NCBI GenBank assembly: GCA_021822495.1
Contig: JAKAQO010000003.1
Span: 147,227-211,226, forward strand
Reading direction: 5' to 3'
DNA: 64,000 nucleotides
Origin: a bacterium
Lineage (GTDB): Bacteria > Elusimicrobiota > Elusimicrobia > UBA1565 > UBA9628
In this document: positions 4,380-17,402 of the stretch, one piece after another
How positions within the stretch are numbered: position 1 is the stretch's first letter
Layout of the letters: each line of letters opens with the position of its first letter
Made by a program: the position numbers and the translations under genes
Notes under the pieces: generated by a model
Databases searched by the model: none
Told to the model about the DNA's origin: nothing
What the model saw: the letters and a program-made list of their open reading frames with translations, nothing else

Positions 4380-4424
4380 TGCCCCCGACGAGAATCGAAC
4401 TCGTGTTTCGGCCTTGAAAGGGCC
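4380..4424. repeat. attL: 45-bp direct repeat of the tRNA-Glu 3' end
   Basis: tgcccccgacgagaatcgaactcgtgtttcggccttgaaagggcc, identical to 17331-17375. Confidence 0.93.
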
Positions 4425-4529
4425 TAAATATTTCATTATTTTTACGGTTCCAAAAACCATAAAAAACGTAGGTTTTATAAGGAAAATTAGACGCCTCAGC
4501 AAACCCTTCTCTAAAAAAATCATTGTATT

Positions 4530-4556
4530 AAAGTGTGCGCTTTTATGTGCGCTTTG
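4530..4556 (+). repeat. Putative integrase arm-type site, left copy
   Basis: aaagtgtgcgcttttatgtgcgctttg; matches 17199-17225 at 22/27; 105 nt lie between it and attL. Confidence 0.5.
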
Positions 4557-4577
4557 AAGGGAGGAGAGAAATCAACC

Positions 4578-6713
4578 ATGAACACACAAGAAATTTCTGA
4601 AACTTTAAAATCTGAACAGAAATGCGATGCGGTTAACACAGATGATATTTTAGCCGTCCTGGATGAATTTCTTGAGGAGAGTGGAAAATCTTCTCGCGGC
4701 CATTGTTCCAAAGAGGCGACTAAAACCGGCATCGAACACTTAAAAAAAGCTCTCAAGGAATCAGGCTTGCCTCTCAAACAATTCGTCGCGGAAGACGGCC
4801 TCATTCACTATACCCAAAAATTGCGATTAAGCGTCTCGGCAAAATATATTGAGCGGCTCAAAGACCCCTGGCGCAAAGCCTTCCGCTATTTTTGCAAGAG
4901 ACGGCTTTTAGCATTGGATTATAGCCGTTGCGCGGCTTTGTCTAAGGAAAAAGACCCCTATGACCTTGAGAAATGGGAGAGCGGCTATCCTGAAGCCTGG
5001 CTGGGGATTTATCCCGCCTCCATTGTGCCCATCCAGACCATGGCGGCCATCCAACTCAACGATTCCATACCGGAACAGATTAAAAAAGAATATCGCCTCA
5101 TTGTCGAGAATCACCCGGAATGCGAACGAGACGCCACGCGGGCGACCCACTGGGCCACCATCAGGCAACTGGCTTTAGAGCTCAAACTTAATTCTCTCAA
5201 GGACTTAGCATCCCTGGAAGGAGCCCAAAAACTCATGGATTATTTTCTCATGAAGGGCTTCACCAAAAATTCAACTTCTTTGCGGCGTATCATGGGAATG
5301 TATTTAAACTTAAAGAAACTCGGGATCACGGGAGACCCTTTTAAGATTCAAGAGCGCGTCAACGGCGTTCTTCGTCCCGTCATTGATTTGAACCGCTTGC
5401 CGAAAACTAACTCCACGAGGATGTTTTTCGGAATTAAAGGCCGCCTTCATGTGCGCGTCGGGGAGCAGATTCTTGAGTGCCGACTGACCATGGAAGATTT
5501 GAAAAAAATCGCCGCCTATGGAAACCCCGCGCTTGAACGCTGGAAAGACAAACCTCAAGAAGAGCTTCTCTCTGTTTTTCAAGAAGCCCAGGAAAACATC
5601 ATCGCCCGAACCGTCCTTTACTTTCAGCCCAGGCCCATTGAATTTTCAAGCATGAATTGGGGAAACTGGGGAAAAATAGAAGAGGCTCATGCCAGCGAAT
5701 TTCTTCTTCTCTACAACAACGCCCATGAACACCGGAGAAAAACGCGGCCTGATCGCCCTCTCCCATGCAGCTATTTTAAAGAATTGAGCAACCTATGGGA
5801 GTTGCGCCGCGCGGCGTTTGCCTTGAAAGGCGACCCAGATAAGGAAGAATCTTTGCGCCCCGGAATGCTTCGCTCGGGAATTGCGATGTGGATTGATCCC
5901 CAGACGGGAAAGCGACTCAACCCGACACGGATCAATCAATTTCTCAGAAAGGCCCTCTTGAGAATGGGAATTTCCCCCCTTCGCGCCGAACGAGCGACTC
6001 TCTACTGGTTAAGAAAGGCCGATCAGACTTTCGCCAGAACTCATGCAGGCGGAGTTGGAGATAAGTTTTTAGCCGCTCAGGCAGGTCACAGCGAAGAGGT
6101 GATGAAAAAACGCTATGACGGGCCGGAAATTCTCGCTCAAGCCCAACACATGCGGGATCACCTATGGAGCCCGCTTGGAGTGGTTTCCGCCCCGGAAGAA
6201 AAGCTGTCTGCCTCCTCTTCTTTTTCCGCGCCCATGATGGGTCACGTGACAGGACAAGACCTCATATTATGGAGCGGTGAGATGATCAAGGCCCTTAAAG
6301 AGCAAAATATTGGTATTGAAACGACTGTCGAGCCAAAACGACTCAATGAAATCACGGCCCAGGCCGCCTTCCACGCCGGACTTCTTTATTCTTATCAGGA
6401 AGCTGCAAAAATTTTGGATGTTGATGTCCGCACCCTGGAACGCTGGGAAAACTCGAAAATCATTGAGCCGATTCGCTTATCCGGGCATCGCTATATTTTG
6501 AAATCCCAGGTCAACGAGCTGGCTCAATCTCTCAGTCCTGAAGAAGCCGGACGCTTGATTGAACTGAGCGGAAGACAGGTGAGAAACCTCATTCAGGAAG
6601 GGAAATTCCCGGAGGCCTTTGCGCGCGGCAAAAAATGGTTTATTCCCCTGGCGGCCTTAAGAGCTTATCGAGGCTCTCAATCTAAAGATTCCGGCCAAGC
6701 TTCCGCCGCCTGA
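4578..6713 (+). CDS. Tyrosine-recombinase-like protein fused to two C-terminal MerR/excisionase-type HTH domains
   Basis: FQPRPIEFSSMNW (Arg I region), YWLRKADQTFARTHAGG...AGHSEEVMKKRYDG (R, H, Y); C-terminal YSYQEAAKILDVDVRTLERWENSKIIEPIRLSGHRYI and LSPEEAGRLIELSGRQVRNLIQEGKFPEAFARGKKWFIP; start taken at ATG 4578 behind ggaggagag. Confidence 0.7.
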   Translation: MNTQEISETLKSEQKCDAVNTDDILAVLDEFLEESGKSSRGHCSKEATKTGIEHLKKALKESGLPLKQFVAEDGLIHYTQKLRLSVSAKYIERLKDPWRKAFRYFCKRRLLALDYSRCAALSKEKDPYDLEKWESGYPEAWLGIYPASIVPIQTMAAIQLNDSIPEQIKKEYRLIVENHPECERDATRATHWATIRQLALELKLNSLKDLASLEGAQKLMDYFLMKGFTKNSTSLRRIMGMYLNLKKLGITGDPFKIQERVNGVLRPVIDLNRLPKTNSTRMFFGIKGRLHVRVGEQILECRLTMEDLKKIAAYGNPALERWKDKPQEELLSVFQEAQENIIARTVLYFQPRPIEFSSMNWGNWGKIEEAHASEFLLLYNNAHEHRRKTRPDRPLPCSYFKELSNLWELRRAAFALKGDPDKEESLRPGMLRSGIAMWIDPQTGKRLNPTRINQFLRKALLRMGISPLRAERATLYWLRKADQTFARTHAGGVGDKFLAAQAGHSEEVMKKRYDGPEILAQAQHMRDHLWSPLGVVSAPEEKLSASSSFSAPMMGHVTGQDLILWSGEMIKALKEQNIGIETTVEPKRLNEITAQAAFHAGLLYSYQEAAKILDVDVRTLERWENSKIIEPIRLSGHRYILKSQVNELAQSLSPEEAGRLIELSGRQVRNLIQEGKFPEAFARGKKWFIPLAALRAYRGSQSKDSGQASAA

Positions 6714-6727
6714 AAACATTCCGCTCG

Positions 6728-6755
6728 TTTCCGAAAATGTCCCCTCAAAATTTCC
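6728..6755 (+). repeat. 28-bp imperfect direct repeat, copy 1
   Basis: tttccgaaaatgtcccctcaaaatttcc; 24/28 to 6910-6937. Confidence 0.6.
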
Positions 6756-6909
6756 CCGGATGTCGCACTTTCCCATCAATGAAAAATTATCATTATATTT
6801 CAATGATTTTTTCAATCTGTATAATGAGCAGCTATGGCAAAGGCTTTTCGTTAGACAGCAACATCAAACAACATCCACCAACGAGAAGGACTCTCAAGCA
6901 ACATGGACA

Positions 6910-6937
6910 TTTCCGCAAATGTCGCCCCCAAATTTCC
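6910..6937 (+). repeat. 28-bp imperfect direct repeat, copy 2
   Basis: tttccgcaaatgtcgcccccaaatttcc. Confidence 0.6.
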
Positions 6938-7085
6938 GAGGAAAAGAATGGATTTTTATTTCGTTTTTGGCATTTATGTCCCACATGGAGACCTTCAGGA
7001 ATCATTATGTCTTTTCCTTTTTTGATGCGCACTATTAAGTTAATTGATGTAATATTGCTAAAATTTTAACTTTAGGAATATAAAA

Positions 7086-10000
7086 ATGAATGAACGATTC
7101 ATTAAAAATGTAGTAGAAAAATTGCGTGACAAGCTTCTGGATCGTTCAAAAAGGAATCCGCTAATCTCGTTCCGTCATAGTGAACGTTCACGCAAACAGA
7201 TCAGGATTGTCAATCTGCTTATTGACCAAGCCTTTGCGGCTCTTGAGACATTAAAAAGTATAGCGATACAACCCCTTCCATCTTTCGAGTCTCCAGATGA
7301 GCAAATGCCAGAGTTCATTGAAGCTCTAAAAAGAGTAAAGCAAGAAGATAAAGATTATCTTAATGCCGTAAAGGCACTTGGAGAGAAACCTCCGACGAAA
7401 TCACTTCTGAAGTTAGAACGTAAATTGCGCGACCAACTGCGTTCCAGTTTGAGTATGGCGCCGATTAAAAATTCGCCAGAAGAATATGCGAAGATACTAG
7501 GCATTTCACCGAATTACGATCTATCAAAAGGACCCTATAAAGGCGTTAGAAAACAACTTCAAACAATTCTCTATTCAGATGATCTTGAACGAAAACTTTC
7601 TGGAATATATGAACAAGCACATCTTTCTGAATCAGAGACAGGCATCAATACTTTGCAATTTGCGTTCGGATTCCTCGAATGGTATGAAAACGAAAATTCA
7701 GAGGAACCAATTTACTCACCACTAACGCTTTATCCTGTACAAATCAATCGTGAAATTTCCAATGGCGAATATGTCTACACAGTTTCTTCTCGTGAAGAAG
7801 ATCTTTCAGACAATATCTGCCTTCTCGAACGATTGAAGGAAGATTTTGCCATTAATCCATTACGGCTTAAGAAGGAGGAGTCCCCTGAACACTATCTCGC
7901 GCGTTTTGAAATATTAATCAAGAAACACCGATCCTGGAAGGTCCATAAATTCATCACCCTAAGCTTCTTTTCCTTCGCAAAACTTGTAATGTATCATGAT
8001 CTTGAATCAGCCCTATCAACGAAACTACCTGATAATTCTGTCTTATCGAAACTAATTGAGGGAACAGAAAGCTTAAATAATACGTCTTTTGCCGAAGACT
8101 ATGAAGTTGATAAACCCGAAATAAACTCCCGATTGCAAGATGTAATTCTGGATGCTGATTCATCGCAACTAAGCGCAATTGTTGATGTCTTAGAGGGAGA
8201 AAACATCGTAATACAAGGACCTCCAGGGACAGGGAAATCACAAACAATAACGAACATCATTGCGGTAGCAATAGCCGCAGGAAAATCAGTCCTTTTTATC
8301 GCAGAGAAGAGAGCTGCGTTAGAAGTTGTCAAGAAGAGGCTTGATGATGTTGGTCTCGGCACCTTTTGCCTAGAATTACATTCCAATAAAACTCGAAAAA
8401 CCGATGTTTTAGCTTCACTTAAAGACTGGACAAATCAACAGCACTCTCATGGAAAAAAATTGATTCCTATCGAAGCTAGGCTTGCTGCTCACTTGAACCA
8501 AATAAAGAATACAATTGGAGATTACGTCAGTGTTCTTCACACTCCATTCGGGAAAACCGGAGAGACTCTCCATTCAATTCTTTGGATGGCATTACGATTA
8601 AGATATGAAGCCTCGGAACTACCGCCCCAATTAAGTGACGTGACTATAGGAAATGCTACTGAACTCACGAAATCCGATATCCAAAAAAACCAAGATGCAC
8701 TACGGGCACTGGAGATTCATCTCAAGGCAAATCTTTCAGATTATCCCTCGATAGAGGTTCATCCATGGTACGGTTTGGCTCAAGCAAATCACTCTCCAGA
8801 TGATTCTAAGCTTCTTCAAGTCTACATTGCCGATAGCATTAAAACCCTTAAAGACCTTTTCAAATCTGTTTCAGTAATTCGGCATTTTGGAAAATCATTG
8901 GAGTTGTTGTCCGTTAATGAGATTCAGAAGTTGGTAAATGCCATTTCAAATGGTTTTATTATTGAACAAAATGCGGCCTTTGACATTGCCCACGTTATTA
9001 ACGAGAATCTGGACTCCGTTAAAAAGGCTCTAGAAAATACTGAAGCTTTGTGGATTACAGAAAGAGAACTTGCCGGTTATATCGATTCAGATGCCGATAA
9101 TCGGGTTCAGGTAAAAGATATAACGGAATTAAGCAATTTAGTGCAACGGCTGGATATAACAATATTTTCACCCGCAGAAATACCCTCTTTAATTGGACCA
9201 GCTCAAGATATCCTGAACAACTGGACAGAACTTCAAGCAATCATAGCTCGCATTGCGAATATTCTTTCAATTGATTCCAGGGCGCTTACATTTCGGCATG
9301 TAAACTGGTTGCTTTTGGCAATCGGATTTGCCAAAGAGGCATCATCTCGGATTCTGGAGTATAGGCACCCTGCAATTCTTAATCCGGATAACTGTGTTCC
9401 GATTGCCATTGCTGTCCGCCCAATCAAGCGACTGCGTGATGAACGCGAGTTCCTGGGAAACGTGTTTAAAAAAACGATTTCAATCTCACGCAAGGATATT
9501 TCGGCCGCTGCTACTTGCCTTGGGAACTTTACACTATTGAGCTTTTTCCAACGGCGCTATTGGGCGGCACGTCGCTTGTACTATTCAATTGCTATTTCTT
9601 CCAAACACGTAAGCAACCGCCACATGAGCCAAATGCTGGAACGATTGATTTCATTCCAGGATGATTTGGAGCAATTCGAATTGGACCAAAAACTAAAAAA
9701 TATTTTGGGTGATTTATGGAATGGGATTGATTCCGATATTGAAGGTATTAGTGAGATGGCATCCTGGAGCAAAAAGGTTGCTGAGGAATTTCCAACTTAC
9801 GATGATTTCTCAAAGAAGATTAGAAAATGGCTTTTTGAAGCACAACCAGGAGAGATAGCACTCCTTAAAGAATTCGCGAATCATCCACTTCGTGAATTAT
9901 TCTTAGATATTATTTCACCAAGAAGAGTTTCTCCTCGCAAGCAGTTTATTGATGAGTTGAATGAGCGGAGCGAGAGAGTGATTGGTCTTACACGAGTTAA

Positions 10001-12149
10001 TGCTCTTTGTCGTTTAATAGGATTGCGGAGTAATCTTCGATTTGAGGAAATCCTAAAGATAAAAAAGACTGCGAGCGACCGAGATCGTCTGCGCGAAACC
10101 CTAGCATCTGAAGAGATAAAGAATATACTTTCAGCACATTACCCTATAAACCGTGAAAACATAGATCGTATCCGATCTACAGTAACCTTAGTAAATAGTC
10201 TCAATAAATTGCCCTTGGCTGACAAATGGATAGAGTTATTATTGGAGCATGATTGTAGACGGGTAATTGAAGAAGTTAGCAGTGCTCTTCAGAATTTGAA
10301 TACCCCATTGATCCAGGCTATGGAGAGTATTAATAAGATTGAATCTCTTTGTCATAATTCAACTCCAATGTTGCGTGATAATACACTTATTGGAGTTATT
10401 GAGCGCTTAGAAAAGGCGTTGAGCAATCCTGCGGCTCTTGGAGTTCTTATTGACTTTTTGCGGGCAGAAGAACATGTTATAAGGGTTGGAGCAGGTCCTG
10501 TTTTGGATGCGTATAGGAGTGCGAAGATTCCGTTCAAGAAACTCGAAATGATTTATAGCTTTTCGGTTTACAATTCTATTTTAAAGGCTGCTCAAGAAAA
10601 ATTTCCTCAACTCAAAGAATCTGTCAGTTTCCAATTTAAAGAGCTTCGGGAACGGTTTGTTCAGATCGAAAATGAGCTTTTAGATCTTCGTCGAAAAAAG
10701 ATTGCTAGTCAATTATTGTCTCGAAGTATAAACAAGGGCACCTCCAGCGGCAAGGCAAGCGACCTAACTCAGTTAGGTCTAATCATCCATGAACTTTCTA
10801 AACAAAGGAAACATATCTCTATTCGTGAACTGCTTTCCCGTGCTGGAAGCGCTATACGACAGATGAAACCATGCTTTATGATGAGCCCGCTCTCTGTGGC
10901 ACAGTTTCTTTCTGGAGATTTTACATTTGATGTAGTCATTATGGATGAAGCATCTCAGTTGCGGCCAGAGGATGCTGTTGGTGCCGTGATGCGGGCAAAA
11001 CAAGTTGTTATTGTTGGTGATCCCAAGCAACTACCTCCGACAAATTTCTTTAATTTTTCTGATGATGCGCCATCTATTGATACGGCTGAAGATGTAGACA
11101 GCAATGTTGATCAGGAATCCATCCTTGACTTGGCTTATCGCTCATTCCGTCCAGTCCGTCGTCTCCGTTGGCATTATAGATCACGACATGAATCTTTGAT
11201 CGCTTTCTCCAACCATGCCTTTTACGATAAAAATTTAATCATATTCCCTTCGCCATTTCCCGGACTAACACACGGCATAAAATTCATTCCTGTTGATGGA
11301 CTTTATGATAAGCGAAAAAACTTGCCTGAAGCACAGAAGATCGTTGAGGATGTAATTAAATTTATGGAAGAGCATCCTGATCGAAGCTTAGGCATTGTTT
11401 CAATAAATCAGGAACAACGTGATCTAATCGCGGAGCTGATTGAAACAAGAACCATCCACGATCCTATAATCCAGAAGTACCTTAGCAAATGGCAAGAATC
11501 CTTGGAGCCATTTTTTGTAAAGAATCTTGAGAATGTTCAGGGTGATGAGAGAGATGTCATCGTGATCTCCACTGTCTATGGGAAGGATACAAACGGTAAT
11601 CTTTTCCAGCGGTTTGGTCCTATAAATGGTGTGATGGGACACAGGCGACTAAATGTTTTGTTTACACGCGCCAAGGAGCAAATGCTCGTTTTTTCCTCAA
11701 TTAATCCGGAGGAAATAATAACAGATAATAAAAGCTCCGAAGGACTTCGTGCGTTCAAGGAATTTCTTAAGTTTGCAAAAAATCGGCGTTTAGACACAGA
11801 AACTCAAGTGGATTCCAATCGTGAGCCGGATTCTGATTTCGAAGTATTTGTGATGGAGAGGCTTCGCGAAAAAGGATATCAAGTTGTCCCTCAGGTAGGG
11901 GTAGCTGGATACTCAATTGATCTGGCTGTTCAGGATCCGCATCTACCCAGTAAATACGTGCTCGGAATTGAGTGCGACGGTGCCACCTACCATTCAGCAA
12001 AATGTGCTCGCGATCGCGATAAGACTCGGCAGGAAATTCTTGAAAAACTCGGCTGGACAATTCATCGCATATGGTCAACAGATTGGTTTCAGCATACAGA
12101 TAGGGAACTTGCCAAGGTCCTAGAACTCTTACCACCTATTGCCGCATAA
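7086..12149 (+). CDS. DUF4011-type SF1 helicase with C-terminal Vsr/MTES_1575-like endonuclease domain (candidate single-gene defence protein)
   Basis: N-terminal LRDKLLDRSKRNPLISF; Walker A VIQGPPGTGKSQTITNII; Walker B VVIMDEASQLRPEDAVGAVMRAKQVVIVGDPKQLPP; helicase motif NVQGDERDVIVISTVYG; C-terminal FVMERLREKGYQVVPQVGVAGYSIDLAVQDP...GIECDGATYHSAKCARDRDKTRQEILEKLGW. Confidence 0.85.
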   Translation: MNERFIKNVVEKLRDKLLDRSKRNPLISFRHSERSRKQIRIVNLLIDQAFAALETLKSIAIQPLPSFESPDEQMPEFIEALKRVKQEDKDYLNAVKALGEKPPTKSLLKLERKLRDQLRSSLSMAPIKNSPEEYAKILGISPNYDLSKGPYKGVRKQLQTILYSDDLERKLSGIYEQAHLSESETGINTLQFAFGFLEWYENENSEEPIYSPLTLYPVQINREISNGEYVYTVSSREEDLSDNICLLERLKEDFAINPLRLKKEESPEHYLARFEILIKKHRSWKVHKFITLSFFSFAKLVMYHDLESALSTKLPDNSVLSKLIEGTESLNNTSFAEDYEVDKPEINSRLQDVILDADSSQLSAIVDVLEGENIVIQGPPGTGKSQTITNIIAVAIAAGKSVLFIAEKRAALEVVKKRLDDVGLGTFCLELHSNKTRKTDVLASLKDWTNQQHSHGKKLIPIEARLAAHLNQIKNTIGDYVSVLHTPFGKTGETLHSILWMALRLRYEASELPPQLSDVTIGNATELTKSDIQKNQDALRALEIHLKANLSDYPSIEVHPWYGLAQANHSPDDSKLLQVYIADSIKTLKDLFKSVSVIRHFGKSLELLSVNEIQKLVNAISNGFIIEQNAAFDIAHVINENLDSVKKALENTEALWITERELAGYIDSDADNRVQVKDITELSNLVQRLDITIFSPAEIPSLIGPAQDILNNWTELQAIIARIANILSIDSRALTFRHVNWLLLAIGFAKEASSRILEYRHPAILNPDNCVPIAIAVRPIKRLRDEREFLGNVFKKTISISRKDISAAATCLGNFTLLSFFQRRYWAARRLYYSIAISSKHVSNRHMSQMLERLISFQDDLEQFELDQKLKNILGDLWNGIDSDIEGISEMASWSKKVAEEFPTYDDFSKKIRKWLFEAQPGEIALLKEFANHPLRELFLDIISPRRVSPRKQFIDELNERSERVIGLTRVNALCRLIGLRSNLRFEEILKIKKTASDRDRLRETLASEEIKNILSAHYPINRENIDRIRSTVTLVNSLNKLPLADKWIELLLEHDCRRVIEEVSSALQNLNTPLIQAMESINKIESLCHNSTPMLRDNTLIGVIERLEKALSNPAALGVLIDFLRAEEHVIRVGAGPVLDAYRSAKIPFKKLEMIYSFSVYNSILKAAQEKFPQLKESVSFQFKELRERFVQIENELLDLRRKKIASQLLSRSINKGTSSGKASDLTQLGLIIHELSKQRKHISIRELLSRAGSAIRQMKPCFMMSPLSVAQFLSGDFTFDVVIMDEASQLRPEDAVGAVMRAKQVVIVGDPKQLPPTNFFNFSDDAPSIDTAEDVDSNVDQESILDLAYRSFRPVRRLRWHYRSRHESLIAFSNHAFYDKNLIIFPSPFPGLTHGIKFIPVDGLYDKRKNLPEAQKIVEDVIKFMEEHPDRSLGIVSINQEQRDLIAELIETRTIHDPIIQKYLSKWQESLEPFFVKNLENVQGDERDVIVISTVYGKDTNGNLFQRFGPINGVMGHRRLNVLFTRAKEQMLVFSSINPEEIITDNKSSEGLRAFKEFLKFAKNRRLDTETQVDSNREPDSDFEVFVMERLREKGYQVVPQVGVAGYSIDLAVQDPHLPSKYVLGIECDGATYHSAKCARDRDKTRQEILEKLGWTIHRIWSTDWFQHTDRELAKVLELLPPIAA

Positions 12150-12399
12150 CAATCCGCGCTCTTTTCGGTGCTGATTAACCTGCAAAGTCGCTTCAAGGGC
12201 TCTTTACGGCGAAGGAGAGTTCAAGCGACAGGAGGAGATGGAATTGACTCCGGAATCAGAAAATACGAGAACACTCCTCAAATTTGCTCAATGCTATGAA
12301 GCATAGCTAAAAAATAAAGACCGTCGAGAAAAGGCTCATCTGTGACACGGACGGTGTTAGAGGCAATCGAAGATGGAGCTGAAACTAAAAATCGCCTCT

Positions 12400-13071
12400 T
12401 TAAGATTTCTTTTTAAGCCAGTCATCTAAGGCAGGGTTGACTCTAATTGTATCATCGCTTGAATTACACGTTTTGTCGTGAACTTTGCATTTAGCATTGT
12501 GTTTCATCATTTCTTGCGAATTGGCAATTAGATGGGCGCGAGAAGTTCTTGCCTTAGAAGCATCCTCGATATAACCTCGCAAGTCTTCTACGGTTTTCGG
12601 GTAAGTCCGTACTCGCGCATAGCAGTTGATATCTTCTGATTTCCAATTGTCCGTCAGCCGTTGGGGCAAATGAGCTAACCCTTTTACTGACGGAAGAAAA
12701 ATTCCCAAGACCCCATTTGGTAAAGAATTATTTTCCTGTCTTAAAGAGGCTTTCAACTCCCAATCAACATACCGCCGGCTATGCGTACAGCTGCCAATTA
12801 AAACAATGGTTACAGTGGAATCAGAAAGATATTTAGAACGAATCTGGCGCATAATATACTCAGGGTCGCTACTATTGACAAAATCGCCCTGCCCAAGCAG
12901 TCCTACGACTTTGGGTATAAAAACATTATCACCTTCGGGACCGAAGGTCTTTATAAAATTTTCAACTTCCAACTTATCGCCTTCATGATAAGAAATAAAT
13001 ACGGAGCATGGAACTTGTGAATTATACAAGTGGGCTCTAAGGGCATCTAATCTATTGGAAGTCGTTCCCAT
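12400..13071 (-). CDS. TIR-like (MTH538/ThsB-type) domain protein
   Basis: CSVFISYHEGDKLEVENFIKTFG...STVTIVLIGSCTHSRRYVDWELKASLRQ; candidate catalytic Glu in VDWEL. Confidence 0.75.
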   Translation of the reverse strand: MGTTSNRLDALRAHLYNSQVPCSVFISYHEGDKLEVENFIKTFGPEGDNVFIPKVVGLLGQGDFVNSSDPEYIMRQIRSKYLSDSTVTIVLIGSCTHSRRYVDWELKASLRQENNSLPNGVLGIFLPSVKGLAHLPQRLTDNWKSEDINCYARVRTYPKTVEDLRGYIEDASKARTSRAHLIANSQEMMKHNAKCKVHDKTCNSSDDTIRVNPALDDWLKKKS

Positions 13072-13091
13072 TTGTTTTCTCCATAGGCTGT

Positions 13092-13505
13092 CTAACAGAA
13101 ATTATAAGTCATCATCGAAATTAAGATAAGCGTGGCAATCAGGACACCATAGAAAATCAACAAAGTATTAGAGATGATCGCACAGGCCCAGCAGTGAACT
13201 TCTTGCATTACCGAATTGGTATCCATCGAATAATCGGTGTTACCCACACCCTTTCGAGTCAGGTCATAAAGTCTTCGGAACAAGCGTTCCTGCCATAGAA
13301 AATACCCATCTAAAATCCAGAACGCAATAACGGGAACAAAGGTGATTAGCACGAATACCGGATCTGATTTATCGGCCGCAAGAGCAAAAAGCCCAGCAAC
13401 AAGCGTTACGGTCCAAGCTTTTATAGTAAAAGAATTTTGGGCCATTCGGCTTATGACGGCTTGAATCATTTCGAGGTGGCGCAATTTCTTCTCGTCGGAG
13501 TCCAC
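13092..13505 (-). CDS. Small multi-pass membrane protein, operonic with the TIR-like gene
   Basis: Hydrophobic segments SFTIKAWTVTLVAGLFALAA, PVFVLITFVPVIAFWILDGYFLW, IISNTLLIFYGVLIATLILISMM; 20 bp upstream of the TIR-like gene; GTG start. Confidence 0.75.
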   Translation of the reverse strand: MDSDEKKLRHLEMIQAVISRMAQNSFTIKAWTVTLVAGLFALAADKSDPVFVLITFVPVIAFWILDGYFLWQERLFRRLYDLTRKGVGNTDYSMDTNSVMQEVHCWACAIISNTLLIFYGVLIATLILISMMTYNFC

Positions 13506-13524
13506 GAATACAATTATAGCTCTT

Positions 13525-13550
13525 TAAGGGTATAATTAATTATGCCCTTA
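13525..13550. promoter_or_regulatory. 26-bp near-perfect palindrome over the -10 and start codon of the TIR gene, in the divergent promoter
   Basis: taagggtataattaattatgccctta, 12 of 13 pairs; TATAAT at 13531-13536 and reverse TATAAT at 13513-13518. Confidence 0.6.
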
Positions 13551-14123
13551 TTTATTAAATCCCAGCTTCAGAAACTTGCGAAATCTCTGGAAAAATCTTC
13601 TGCACAAATTCTTAAGAATTCCGCCGAAACCACATCAGATTATAATCAGTTCGACATATTCCTATCGCATTCTTCTATGGATGCCGATGCGATCCTTGGA
13701 TTAAAAAATCAACTGGAGAATTTTGGCTACTCCGTTTACGTTGATTGGATTGTCGATCTAAAAATGGATCGACAACGCGTAACAAGAGCCATTGCTGACC
13801 TAATTCGGAAAAGGATGCGACAATGTAAATGCTTGTTTTATGTGCCGTCCGATAACGCAAAGACATCGGTATGGATGCCCTGGGAACTGGGCTATTTTGA
13901 TGGGTTAGATAGAGTTAAGTCAATGAATATTGATGGAAAAGTGGCGATCTGTCCTTTGGCAAATGAAGAAGTCTATGATTATAAGGGTCATGAATATCTT
14001 GGACTCTATCCATTTATATCCGCAGACAAACCACAGGGTGGTGAGAAACCTATTTTATGGGTCAATAGAACTCAAAAAACATACATATCCTTTAAGAAGT
14101 GGCTCGCGGGACATCAACTTTAA
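13542..14123 (+). CDS. TIR-domain protein
   Basis: FDIFLSHSSMDADAILGLKNQLENFGYSVYVDWIVD...VWMPWELGYFDG. Confidence 0.8.
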   Translation: MPLFIKSQLQKLAKSLEKSSAQILKNSAETTSDYNQFDIFLSHSSMDADAILGLKNQLENFGYSVYVDWIVDLKMDRQRVTRAIADLIRKRMRQCKCLFYVPSDNAKTSVWMPWELGYFDGLDRVKSMNIDGKVAICPLANEEVYDYKGHEYLGLYPFISADKPQGGEKPILWVNRTQKTYISFKKWLAGHQL

Positions 14124-14501
14124 ATCATGTCCGCAGTGGTCAGAAAAATGGGGAAGTGCCTCATCCCATGTGTTTTTATGCCAACGCCGGGAAAAGCCAC
14201 GCAGTGCGTGACCTTTTTCTAGGCCAAGCAAGTCATCGTAAACCAGATAGAATTGCCTGAATGTTTTCAGATTGGTAAGTCCGTAACCGGAACGATAGTC
14301 CTCCTTCAAGCGTTCGGCCAAGACTCGCATCAACCGCTCTCCATATGCGGCTCTCTGGCTGCCTTTCTGCTCTTCCTCTACAATCTCGCGGCCAATGAGC
14401 CAATTTGAAACCACCTGCGCCGTGTTGACCGAACGCGCCGCGCCCGCGCGGGCCGATTCAATGATGCCCTTAATTCGCTCGTAAAGAGGCGGTTTATTCA
14501 T
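14055..14501 (-). pseudogene. Truncated DUF1016 (YhcG-like) gene: N-terminal domain only, no PD-(D/E)XK nuclease core
   Basis: MNKPPLYERIKGIIESARAGAARSVNTAQVVSNWLIGREIVEEEQKGSQRAAYGERLMRVLAERL...; tail overlaps the 3' end of the TIR gene. Confidence 0.7.
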
Positions 14502-14555
14502 CGCGTCTTCTCCTATCTAGCATTACGGAAAGCCTCACGGAACCAAACCTGCTTT

Positions 14556-14574
14556 TTGAATGATAATCATTATC
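14556..14574. promoter_or_regulatory. Fur-box-like palindrome
   Basis: ttgaatgataatcattatc, 16/19 to GATAATGATAATCATTATC. Confidence 0.45.
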
Positions 14575-14605
14575 ATCCAAGGTTCCTCAAATAAAACATA
14601 TTTTC

Positions 14606-14758
14606 TCAATTATTCGCCAAGGCTTTTTCCAACAGCAAAGCAATCATGTTACTGAAAGAACGCCGCTCCTTTTGGGCGCAGGCAAGCACCTTCCTGTTAA
14701 GACTTTCTGGAATTGAAGCCGAAATTCTGACTAATTTCTCAACCGGATTTTGTCGCAT
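14606..14758 (-). CDS. 50-aa ribbon-helix-helix (Arc/CopG-like) protein
   Basis: Not in ORF track (short): MRQNPVEKLVRISASIPESLNRKVLACAQKERRSFSNMIALLLEKALANN. Confidence 0.65.
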   Translation of the reverse strand: MRQNPVEKLVRISASIPESLNRKVLACAQKERRSFSNMIALLLEKALANN

Positions 14759-14773
14759 TTAATTATCCCCCAC

Positions 14774-14802
14774 TTGACAAATTAAGCATTGTGATGTATA
14801 AT
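14774..14802 (+). promoter_or_regulatory. Consensus sigma70-type promoter
   Basis: TTGACA - 17 nt - TATAAT upstream of the gene at 14871. Confidence 0.75.
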
Positions 14803-14870
14803 GATGTATATAGTAATTTAAAGAGCCTCTAAAATGTATCTTACATAATTTTTTAAAAAATGAAAAATCA

Positions 14871-15392
14871 ATGGAGAAATTAAAAATGAAAAACAAAAAT
14901 ACCGGAGAAAAGAAAATTAAGCGCAAAAGAAAAAATACCCTGTCAATTGAAAATAATCCCGCCATCTGGGTCGAACGAAGTTTTATTCACCTTCAGGAGC
15001 CAAATAGAGTCGTCTATTTTATTTTGGGCTCAAAGCCCATTCCCTATCCTAACGGAGCCAGCTCCAGAATTCTCTATATCGGAGAAAGCAGCAGAAAAGA
15101 CTTATCAGAGCGTCCATTGGAGTCTCTTAAGGAACACGCCGTTGAATTTCTAAATATTCGCGGCATGAAATATTTAACGGTTATCTGCGTGCGACTTCGG
15201 GCTCGACAAAAAATCAAAATGTCAAAGCTCCTTCAAGACGCCCTATTATTTGAGTTTAAGGCTCTTTACGGCGCGCTTCCTAAAGGAAATTCCCAGAGCG
15301 GAACTGAGCATAAACATTGGCCCATCGAGAGATTAAGGGAAATTCTCAGAAAATACGAAAAGGCATCTGGTGCCGATATCCGCTCAAAATAA
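14871..15392 (+). CDS. GIY-YIG-like hypothetical protein
   Basis: RVVYFILGS...SSRILYIGESSRKDLSERPLESLKEHA resembles the GIY-YIG core. Confidence 0.5.
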   Translation: MEKLKMKNKNTGEKKIKRKRKNTLSIENNPAIWVERSFIHLQEPNRVVYFILGSKPIPYPNGASSRILYIGESSRKDLSERPLESLKEHAVEFLNIRGMKYLTVICVRLRARQKIKMSKLLQDALLFEFKALYGALPKGNSQSGTEHKHWPIERLREILRKYEKASGADIRSK

Positions 15393-15459
15393 AAAAAGGG
15401 AGAAATTATGAATAAAAGAAAAATAAATATTCCGAATAAAAAATTAATTTTTGTGAAAA

Positions 15460-15488
15460 TTGTCGTTTTTAACTTTTCCGCGTATAAC
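15460..15488 (+). promoter_or_regulatory. Promoter of HTH gene 1
   Basis: TTGTCG - 17 nt (tttttaacttttccgcg) - TATAAC. Confidence 0.55.
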
Positions 15489-15528
15489 CAAAGAAGGGTG
15501 AATTTAAATCCCCCTTCAGGAGGACGAT

Positions 15529-15729
15529 ATGCGGAAAGAAGAAACAGCTCATCAGGTGGAACCGTTATGGACCATCGAAGAAGTGGCGCAATATTTATCG
15601 CTCAGCCCTTTCACTATTCGGCGAATGTCGCGGCAGGGGCGATTGCCCGCGATTCGCCTTGGACGTCAATGGCGATTTTCCGGGACGGCCATCAAGAATT
15701 GGGTTCTAAAAAATCAAATAAAAAAATAG
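15529..15729 (+). CDS. Excisionase-type HTH protein
   Basis: LWTIEEVAQYLSLSPFTIRRMSRQGRLPAIRLGRQWRFSGTAIKNWV; aggagg upstream. Confidence 0.85.
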   Translation: MRKEETAHQVEPLWTIEEVAQYLSLSPFTIRRMSRQGRLPAIRLGRQWRFSGTAIKNWVLKNQIKK

Positions 15730-15753
15730 CCGAAATATGGGTATTTTTGAAAT

Positions 15754-15782
15754 TTGTCAAAAATTCATTTCGCGCGTATAAT
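15754..15782 (+). promoter_or_regulatory. Promoter of HTH gene 2, 4 nt from the ATG
   Basis: TTGTCA - 17 nt (aaaattcatttcgcgcg) - TATAAT, then aagcATG. Confidence 0.6.
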
Positions 15783-15786
15783 AAGC

Positions 15787-16113
15787 ATGACCGAACAACT
15801 AAATTCTACTTTGGCCGCGAGCCCCTCGCAGATCAGCGCAGAGATTTCGCATTGTCCGACTTGTCGTTGCTCAGCTGGATTAAATCCCGCCCCAATTATT
15901 CCAGCTTTTCCAGCCCAGGAACACAACTTACTCACAATGAAGGAAGCCGCGCAAAAATTACGAATGAATTATTTTTGGCTCGCGAGAAATTGGAAAAAAA
16001 TGGGACTTCATCCAACCAATTTTGGCCATGGCCGTTTCTTTGATGAAAAAGAAATTAATGACTATATTTTGGATCACCGCTACAGCTATAAGGGAAGGCC
16101 GAGGAAAAAATAG
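15787..16113 (+). CDS. Excisionase/HTH-like protein with N-terminal Cys cluster
   Basis: HCPTCRCSAG...NLLTMKEAAQKLRMNYFWLARNWKKMGLHPTNFGHGRFFDEKEINDYIL; ATG preferred over the upstream TTG in the ORF track. Confidence 0.6.
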   Translation: MTEQLNSTLAASPSQISAEISHCPTCRCSAGLNPAPIIPAFPAQEHNLLTMKEAAQKLRMNYFWLARNWKKMGLHPTNFGHGRFFDEKEINDYILDHRYSYKGRPRKK

Positions 16114-16130
16114 ATGTCTGGGGAAATCCA

Positions 16131-17189
16131 GTGAAAGTACTGAGAAACGGCGACAAAGTGTCTCTCGAATATCGCTATCAGGGTCTGTACATTCGCCGAA
16201 GCGTTTCTCTAGACGCGTTAACGATTTTTTTAAACGGCGAACAGCCTGCCGAATCAAATTTATGCGTAGGCCAAGAACCTATGACTTTTGAAAAATTTTG
16301 CGATAAAACTTATCTTCCAATGAACGCTCGGCATCGGCTTAAAGATTCATCCTACCAGCGCGAATTAGGGCTTATACATGCGCTTAAGAGATTCTTTTCT
16401 AAAACCAAACTTCACGAGATCACGCGCAAGGATTGGGAAGAGTATAAGGATCAGCGGCTCTCAGGGCGTCTCTCGGCCAAAGCAAAACCCTGCGCTCAAG
16501 GGACAGTACTTAAAGAATTTAAGTGCTTGCGGACTATTCTTCAATATGCAACCGATATGGAATTGATTCAACGCAACGTCCTTTCCGATATCAAGAAACC
16601 TGGCCTGGTGGATGGAAATCGCGCCGAAGTCTGGTTGACTAAGGACGAAATCAAAAAATTACTTCCGCATTTCGAAGAGAATCACAAACTTTTTGCCGAA
16701 TTCAGAATCTGGACCGGAGCAAGGCCGGGAGAGGCAAGCCAATTCGGGCGAGAGAATATAAATTGGGAACGGGGCGAAATTTCGTTATTAAACTCAAAAC
16801 AAAAAAAGGGCTCGCGACGCCTCACACATCGGTATTTGAAAATCAAATCGCTGGGACCGCGTTTTGAGGAGCTTCTTAAAAGTTTGGTTCCGCATCCAGT
16901 CAGCAGGCTCTTTTTCTGTCACCAAGATACGGGAAAGCCCTATTCAAGAATACACCTCGCGCGAGTTTTCAAGAAAGCTTTGCAAAAATCAGGAATAAAT
17001 AAAAAAGCGGTGGCTTATGATCTTAGAGGAACATTCGCGGTCCATCGCGCAATGGTCGTGCGAAATTTCAGGCAACTTCAAGTTGAGCTTGGACATGCTT
17101 CACCGGAATCGATTCAGCACTACCTGAATCAGGCCACGCATTTCGATCCAAAAGAGTCCATTTTTTACGGGATTGAGGGACTCAAATGA
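16131..17189 (+). CDS. int: Tyrosine-type site-specific integrase
   Basis: TGARPGEASQF, YDLRGTFAVHRA, LGHASPESIQHYLNQ; adjacent to tRNA-Glu; GTG start. Confidence 0.9.
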   Translation: MKVLRNGDKVSLEYRYQGLYIRRSVSLDALTIFLNGEQPAESNLCVGQEPMTFEKFCDKTYLPMNARHRLKDSSYQRELGLIHALKRFFSKTKLHEITRKDWEEYKDQRLSGRLSAKAKPCAQGTVLKEFKCLRTILQYATDMELIQRNVLSDIKKPGLVDGNRAEVWLTKDEIKKLLPHFEENHKLFAEFRIWTGARPGEASQFGRENINWERGEISLLNSKQKKGSRRLTHRYLKIKSLGPRFEELLKSLVPHPVSRLFFCHQDTGKPYSRIHLARVFKKALQKSGINKKAVAYDLRGTFAVHRAMVVRNFRQLQVELGHASPESIQHYLNQATHFDPKESIFYGIEGLK

Positions 17190-17198
17190 CACTGAAAA

Positions 17199-17225
17199 AA
17201 AGTGTGCGCTTGACTGTGCGGTTTT
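17199..17225 (+). repeat. Putative integrase arm-type site, right copy
   Basis: aaagtgtgcgcttgactgtgcggtttt; 105 nt lie between it and attR. Confidence 0.5.
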
Positions 17226-17327
17226 GGGCAAAAAGAAGCAAAAAGGAGCAAATATCAGCAATCTTAACGACGGAGGTCAAATTATGAAATTACGCTTAGA
17301 AAATAACAGTTTCGTCGAGAAAAAACC

Positions 17328-17402
17328 TGGTGCCCCCGACGAGAATCGAACTCGTGTTTCGGCCTTGAAAGGGCCGCGTCCTAACCGTTAGACGACGGGG
17401 GC
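17328..17402 (-). tRNA. tRNA-Glu(TTC)
   Basis: Cloverleaf GCCCCCG...GGCCCTTTCAAGGCC...CGGGGGCACCA; anticodon TTC; CCA encoded. Confidence 0.95.
17331..17375. repeat. attR: 45-bp direct repeat inside tRNA-Glu
   Basis: Identical to 4380-4424. Confidence 0.93.

What the first reader, a model, noticed from the sequence alone, without database searches (positions are those of the whole stretch)
12400..14123. Candidate new TIR system: two different TIR proteins and a small membrane protein under one divergent promoter
The - strand operon encodes a 137-aa multi-pass membrane protein followed 20 bp later by a TIR-like (MTH538/ThsB-type) protein. A second, different TIR protein diverges on + only 36 bp away. 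Both TIR proteins keep a WEL motif (VDWEL, MPWEL) that could hold the catalytic Glu of NADase TIRs. In Thoeris, ThsB TIRs signal to a separate effector; here no ThsA-like SIR2 or macro gene is nearby and the membrane protein is the obvious candidate effector. Two sensors or synthases feeding one membrane effector would be a distinct layout.
Basis: partly seen in the sequence, partly recalled or inferred. Interest (0 to 1): 0.8.

Follow-up and report, generated by a model that had tools for sequence, protein, structure and literature searches.

The report
TIR pair with shared membrane effector
A small, probably mobile defence island in an Elusimicrobiota bacterium carries two different TIR enzymes next to one three-helix membrane protein; across many phyla that membrane protein is almost always found beside some TIR-type enzyme, so it is probably an overlooked membrane effector of Thoeris-like phage defence, already listed as an untested candidate in a defence database.

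Summary
The three genes are real and correctly placed. Both flanking proteins are TIR proteins with an invariant catalytic-type Glu (E105, E115). The - strand pair is not new: PADLOC already lists it as the untested candidate PDC-M50 (membrane protein M50A, E 1e-47). The new result is what M50A does across genomes. Of 70 M50A copies with at least 1 kb of DNA on both sides, 59 have a TIR or TIR-like (nucleoside-deoxyribosyltransferase-like) gene on the same strand within 150 bp. Further from M50A such genes are nearly absent, and six viral contigs not used to build the models all fit. At least seven partner classes occur, most matching Thoeris ThsB models. Partners change repeatedly on the M50A tree, yet Q15, R20, D66 and E73 of M50A never vary. 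The two-TIR layout recurs: three other Elusimicrobiota loci have C-type TIR, M50A and ThsB-type TIR in one operon, and about nine loci have two TIRs around M50A. The window's trio lies in a 12.95-kb tRNA-Glu island that four congeners lack. Best reading: TIRs sense phage and make an NAD-derived signal, and M50A is a membrane effector replacing ThsA. Signal, membrane action and defence are inferred.

The parts
12400..13071 (-). P0001: ThsB-type TIR of a divergent subclass (B'); catalytic-type Glu E105 (VDWEL), conserved N- and C-terminal extensions
   Evidence: Pfam ThsB_TIR 4e-15; PADLOC ThsB 3e-8 and PDC-M50B 4e-8; 44-50% identity to Zixibacteria, Omnitrophota, Vibrio plasmid and Elusimicrobiota homologues with E105 invariant; AF2 model matches TIR structures 8fz9, 8wcf (EcThsB), 9b7d (ThsB)
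13092..13505 (-). P0002: three-helix membrane protein of the PDC-M50A family, candidate effector
   Evidence: PADLOC PDC-M50A 1e-47; AF2 pLDDT 90.6; Q15, R20, D66, E73 invariant in 90 homologues; hub of TIR neighbourhoods
13542..14123 (+). P0003: TIR of a second class (C), close to PADLOC ThsB PDLC00422 and PDB 8btn; catalytic-type Glu E115 (MPWEL)
   Evidence: homologues operonic with M50A in L020, L021, L046, L054, L056, L069, L084, L088, L103, L109, L118
13525..13550 (.). imperfect palindrome TAAGGGTATAATTAATTATGCCCTTA over the P0003 start codon; possible operator or hairpin
   Evidence: could be chance in AT-rich DNA; not tested
4380..4424 (.). attL-like 45-bp copy of the 3' part of tRNA-Glu
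   Evidence: 100% identical to 17331-17375
17331..17375 (.). attR-like 45-bp repeat inside tRNA-Glu (17328-17402 -)
   Evidence: flanks abut in congeners
16131..17189 (+). tyrosine recombinase of the island
   Evidence: Pfam Phage_integrase 1.5e-17
7086..12149 (+). Hhe/ProA-like DUF4011 helicase-nuclease, a neighbouring defence gene (not part of the trio)
   Evidence: PADLOC PDC-S37 and Hhe, NCBIfam Hhe below the equivalog cut-off

Best explanation
The trio is a Thoeris-like TIR signalling module with a different effector. P0001 and P0003 are two ThsB-like TIR enzymes, probably responding to different phage cues. Each converts NAD+ into an ADP-ribose-type signal when triggered. P0002 (M50A), a three-helix inner-membrane protein with a conserved polar network on its cytosolic side (Q15, R20, N24, K29, D66, E73, R77), takes the place of ThsA. 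On binding the signal it would change its oligomeric state and open or disrupt the membrane, stopping phage growth by halting the cell. Shown by sequence: the parts, the catalytic-type Glu residues, the three membrane helices, the very strong and repeated M50A-TIR linkage, partner exchange, and location in a tRNA-integrated island with another defence gene. Inferred: NADase activity, the signal, its binding to M50A, membrane damage, and phage defence.
For: In 59 of 70 M50A copies with at least 1 kb on both sides, a same-strand TIR/NDT-class gene lies within 150 bp. Across all loci, 87 class genes lie within 150 bp and only 2 lie beyond 2.5 kb, over about 500 kb examined. An independent Pfam scan of 114 neighbours gave ThsB_TIR in 71, TIR_2 in 45, CAP12-PCTIR_TIR in 6 and Nuc_deoxyri_tr2 in 5; none of these appears among the families listed for 111 ORFs further off. 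Held-out viral contigs: 6 of 6 have a TIR partner. A Vibrio phage record annotates the gene overlapping M50A by 4 bp as Thoeris ThsB. Partner TIRs match PADLOC ThsB models, and B-class TIRs match solved EcThsB (8wcf, 2e-49) and BcThsB (6lhy/9b7d, 1.6e-47). Partner labels need 33 changes on the M50A tree against a minimum of 14; strongly supported branches alone force at least 4 changes for the C partner. Q15, R20, D66 and E73 are invariant whatever the partner. One effector with several TIRs recurs. The island is mobile-looking and absent from four congeners. Precedent: His-ADPR made by TIRs drives oligomerisation of TM-macro ThsA and membrane perturbation (PMC12847820, citing work not read here).
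Against: No experiment on this family was found. M50A has no recognisable ligand-binding domain; its polar network is only a candidate site. Eleven of 70 well-flanked copies have no recognised partner. The M50A model has no significant structural match, so pore or channel behaviour is not supported by homology. Diverse partners need not make the same signal.
Confidence: 0.6

Rival explanations
1. Reverse roles with direct contact: M50A is the membrane sensor or scaffold that recruits and oligomerises TIRs, and the TIRs are the toxic effectors that deplete NAD+.
For: Adjacent, often overlapping genes fit complex formation. TIRs can be NAD-depleting effectors, for example SpbK (PMC12847820). M50A's long N-terminal helix (3-46), whose first half is predicted cytosolic, could bind a partner.
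Against: Partners span several TIR classes and an NDT-like family that share no obvious docking surface, while the M50A invariants stay fixed. The nearest partners are ThsB-type, which in Thoeris make signals.
Confidence: 0.22
2. The two TIRs are not alternative synthases but two subunits of one mixed TIR enzyme, both needed for each signal.
For: They lie in one operon in L019, L020 and L021 and adjacent on a Sinorhizobium plasmid without M50A. TIR active sites form by self-association (PMC11204291).
Against: Each class occurs alone with M50A: B-type in 36 loci, C-type in 8.
Confidence: 0.15
3. The window holds two independent things: a PDC-M50 pair and an unrelated stand-alone ThsB-like gene that landed beside it in a crowded island.
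For: P0003 is divergent, not in the operon. The island holds other defence genes.
Against: The same C-type TIR class is operonic with M50A in at least 11 other loci, including three Elusimicrobiota C-A-B operons; the 36-bp spacing makes independence unlikely.
Confidence: 0.08

Closest known systems
PADLOC candidate PDC-M50 (M50A + M50B), from the guilt-by-embedding screen
   Same: P0002 is M50A (1e-47); P0001 is weakly M50B-like (4e-8), in the same gene pair
   Different: P0001 is a divergent subclass; P0003 is a second TIR class outside the two PDC-M50 model sets; other M50A partner classes are not covered either. PMC12988326 notes that most PDCs are unvalidated; M50 is not named in it
Thoeris type I (ThsB + SIR2-SLOG ThsA)
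   Same: ThsB-family TIRs; several TIRs per effector is also common in Thoeris (general knowledge)
   Different: No SIR2-SLOG ThsA found; a three-helix membrane protein instead
Thoeris type II (ThsB + TM-macro ThsA; Shi 2024 PMC11204291)
   Same: TIR signal to a membrane effector; two ThsBs (EcThsB1, EcThsB2) with one ThsA in E. coli
   Different: M50A has no macro domain and the genome has no Macro hit
TIR + SLATT (2TM) neighbourhoods (PMC9503650)
   Same: TIR gene beside a small membrane protein predicted to be an ADPr-regulated permeability effector
   Different: No SLATT model among the Pfam families listed for 70 M50A sequences; comparison with two SLATT/DUF4231-type proteins is negative
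Three-gene TIR + transmembrane system of P2-like phage AC1 (Rousset 2022, PMC9122126)
   Same: TIR with transmembrane partners; shown to protect against phages lambda, LF82_P8 and P2
   Different: More than one transmembrane protein and one TIR there; one membrane protein and two TIRs here; no sequence link found

Membership tests
PDC-M50 (PADLOC) | M50A membrane protein | tested here: met
   E 1e-47
PDC-M50 (PADLOC) | adjacent M50B TIR | tested here: inconclusive
   P0001 hits PDC-M50B at only 4e-8, about equal to ThsB models; it forms its own subclass
Thoeris (any type) | ThsB TIR protein | tested here: met
   Pfam ThsB_TIR for P0001; PADLOC ThsB 5e-60 for P0003
Thoeris type I | SIR2-SLOG ThsA | tested here: inconclusive
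   None in the island; no STALD hit in the genome, but that search lacked a positive control; two SIR2_2 proteins lie elsewhere and were only read by eye
Thoeris type II | TM-macro ThsA | tested here: not met
   No Macro domain in the genome, control genomes positive; assembly 94.7% complete
Thoeris type IV | caspase-like effector | not tested
   No caspase-like domain was among the Pfam hits of the island genes scanned, but no dedicated search was made
Thoeris (any type) | TIR makes an NAD-derived signal that activates the effector | not testable with these tools
   Only the conserved Glu was checked
TIR-SLATT systems | SLATT/DUF4231 membrane domain | tested here: not met
   No SLATT model among the 25 Pfam families listed for 70 M50A sequences; hhalign under 1% probability against two SLATT/DUF4231-type proteins, which is a weak test
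Rousset AC1 TIR + transmembrane system | several transmembrane proteins with one TIR | tested here: not met
   One membrane protein and two TIRs
TIR enzyme | TIR fold with catalytic Glu | tested here: met
   Pfam, PDB and fold matches; E105 and E115 invariant

The most novel reading that the evidence does not exclude
M50A is a general, signal-gated membrane effector that defines a separate Thoeris-like type: one three-helix protein reads a common NAD- or nucleotide-derived messenger made by many different TIR classes and by NDT-like enzymes, and genomes like this one plug two different sensors into it to widen the phage range.
Probability: 0.4. Interest if true: 0.75.

Novelty: new variant of a known kind. 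Interest (0 to 1): 0.52.

Why it matters
If right, a widespread but unnamed protein family (at least 430 genome stretches across many phyla, 136 plasmid records, viral contigs and a Vibrio phage) is another kind of TIR-signal effector beside SIR2-SLOG and TM-macro ThsA. Its exchange among TIR and NDT-like partners gives a direct test of whether different enzymes make the same messenger.

Tried and rejected
M50A as a SLATT domain: no SLATT model among the Pfam families listed and hhalign negative. M50A as DUF2270, DUF3278 or 8xMP: only weak hits (best 2e-4) and a weak DUF2270 fold match (E 0.26), not accepted. Solved relatives of M50A: none. sigma70 divergent promoter: not found. A ThsA elsewhere in the genome: no Macro hit, and the two SIR2_2 proteins were not shown to be ThsA. 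First alignment A1 was too diverse to scan; replaced by A2. The paper on 12 E. coli TIR systems (PMC11350192) is not held. No paper naming PDC-M50 was found, nor one describing a type III Thoeris. An E. coli DNA search with a Klebsiella M50A gave nothing, although P0002 as protein hits 36 Escherichia plasmid records.

Full report
What is there. The window is part of a 2.2-Mb Elusimicrobiota genome; the phylum follows from the phylum search and from locus L066 (named Elusimicrobium minutum), which is the same contig as genome G107. At 12400-14123 lie three ORFs: P0001 (-, 223 aa), P0002 (-, 137 aa, 20 bp upstream of P0001) and P0003 (+, 193 aa, 36 bp from P0002). P0001 hits Pfam ThsB_TIR at 4e-15. 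P0003 hits TIR_2, a PADLOC ThsB model at 5e-60 and PDB 8btn_B at 1e-45. P0002 hits PADLOC PDC-M50A at 1e-47 and no Pfam family above cut-off. The minus-strand pair therefore corresponds to the catalogued candidate PDC-M50, although P0001 scores only 4e-8 against PDC-M50B.

Setting. The trio lies in a 12.95-kb island bounded by 45-bp perfect repeats of the 3' part of tRNA-Glu (4380-4424 and 17331-17375). It contains a tyrosine recombinase and an Hhe/ProA-like helicase-nuclease, and its GC is lower than its flanks (0.43 against 0.49). In all four congeneric genomes both flanks match on one contig side by side; in the two clearest (G224, G225) the two matches overlap by about the repeat length, i.e. 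the site is empty.

P0001. It belongs to a small TIR subclass (called B' here), 44-50% identical to proteins from a Zixibacteria MAG (B'-M50A pair), an Omnitrophus (B'-M50A-B trio), a Vibrio harveyi plasmid (beside a DUF4231 gene), and another Elusimicrobiota genome without M50A next to it. A 40%-identical copy sits directly before a C-class TIR on a Sinorhizobium plasmid. E105 is invariant. The AF2 model (pLDDT 72.6) matches TIR structures, including EcThsB and BcThsB.

P0003. It belongs to a second class (C) with invariant E115; 8btn is its closest solved relative.

P0002 as a hub. M50A relatives were found in 13 of 341 Elusimicrobiota genomes, 136 plasmid records, at least 430 GTDB genome stretches (best 80 kept) and viral contigs. 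For 94 copies I recorded neighbours. Pfam on 114 immediate neighbour ORFs gave ThsB_TIR in 71, TIR_2 in 45, CAP12-PCTIR_TIR in 6 and Nuc_deoxyri_tr2 in 5. A control of 111 ORFs more than 2.5 kb away listed no TIR family, with the caveat that only the 25 most frequent of 211 families are printed. Class-specific HMMs give the same picture: 87 hits within 150 bp, 2 beyond 2.5 kb over about 500 kb; 59 of 70 well-flanked copies have a partner. These HMMs were seeded from neighbours, so I checked held-out data: in six new viral contigs, 6 of 6 M50A copies have a TIR partner, one of them two (B-A-E). A tailless Vibrio phage record (PQ189363.1) annotates the gene overlapping its M50A as Thoeris ThsB.

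Partners and exchange. At least seven classes occur (B, C, D, E, F, CAP12-TIR, NDT-like, plus other TIR_2). Most match PADLOC ThsB models, and class B is close to solved EcThsB and BcThsB. On an M50A tree of 90 copies the labels need 33 changes (minimum 14); strongly supported branches force at least 4 changes for class C. The tree is short (126 columns) and was built by the quick method, so details are unsure. Q15, R20, D66 and E73 are invariant whatever the partner.

Two TIRs, one membrane protein. Three other Elusimicrobiota loci have C-A-B operons (L019, L020, L021). Eleven of 94 copies have two partner-class genes within 150 bp on the same strand: nine with two TIRs and two with an NDT-like gene plus a TIR. 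The exact B'-A-C set in divergent orientation was seen only here.

M50A structure. AF2 pLDDT 90.6: a long N-terminal helix running into TM1, then TM2 with its cytosolic extension, and TM3. Positive charges put the N-terminus and the TM2-TM3 loop in the cytosol. No solved or viral structure matches significantly. It is not detectably SLATT.

Mechanism. Adjacent ThsB-family TIRs with intact Glu, a membrane protein that follows many TIR classes while keeping its polar core, and mobile defence surroundings together favour TIR-made signal to membrane effector. This is by analogy with Thoeris and with the TIR-SLATT proposal (PMC9503650, PMC11204291, PMC12847820). Every biochemical step is inferred. 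The direct-contact model with M50A as sensor is the main rival.

Novelty. The pair is catalogued but, as far as the held papers show, uncharacterised. What is added here is the hub role of M50A, its partner classes, the recurrent two-TIR layout, and the island context.

Noticed in passing
window 4380-17375: 12.95-kb integrative island in tRNA-Glu with 45-bp direct repeats; the flanks abut in congeners (empty site).
   Followed up: partly
window 7086-12149: 1687-aa DUF4011 helicase with MTES_1575 nuclease, between Hhe and ProA in score but below both equivalog cut-offs; possibly a distinct subtype (PADLOC PDC-S37).
   Followed up: no
window 14055-14501: Truncated DUF1016_N protein whose 3' end overlaps the end of P0003 on the other strand; only the first ~90 aa match, so probably a decayed gene.
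   Followed up: no
window 14871-15392: 173-aa ORF in the island without any significant family match.
   Followed up: no
L074, L086, L099, L071, L092: Nucleoside-deoxyribosyltransferase-like (Nuc_deoxyri_tr2) genes beside M50A in Poribacteria and a cyanobacterium, twice together with a ThsB-type TIR: a possible non-TIR signal synthase.
   Followed up: partly
L138 (PQ189363.1 1347-2635): A tailless Vibrio phage (Vinavirales) carries ThsB plus M50A next to its integrase; the M50A gene is annotated only as hypothetical.
   Followed up: partly
L114 3953-6844: Four consecutive TIR genes (B', C, TIR_2, ThsB-like) on a Sinorhizobium chiapasense plasmid, with no M50A recognised in the stretch.
   Followed up: no
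L129, L130 (own genome contigs C4, C6): Two SIR2_2 proteins elsewhere in the window's genome, likely separate defence genes.
   Followed up: no
window 13525-13550: 26-bp palindrome across the P0003 start codon.
   Followed up: no
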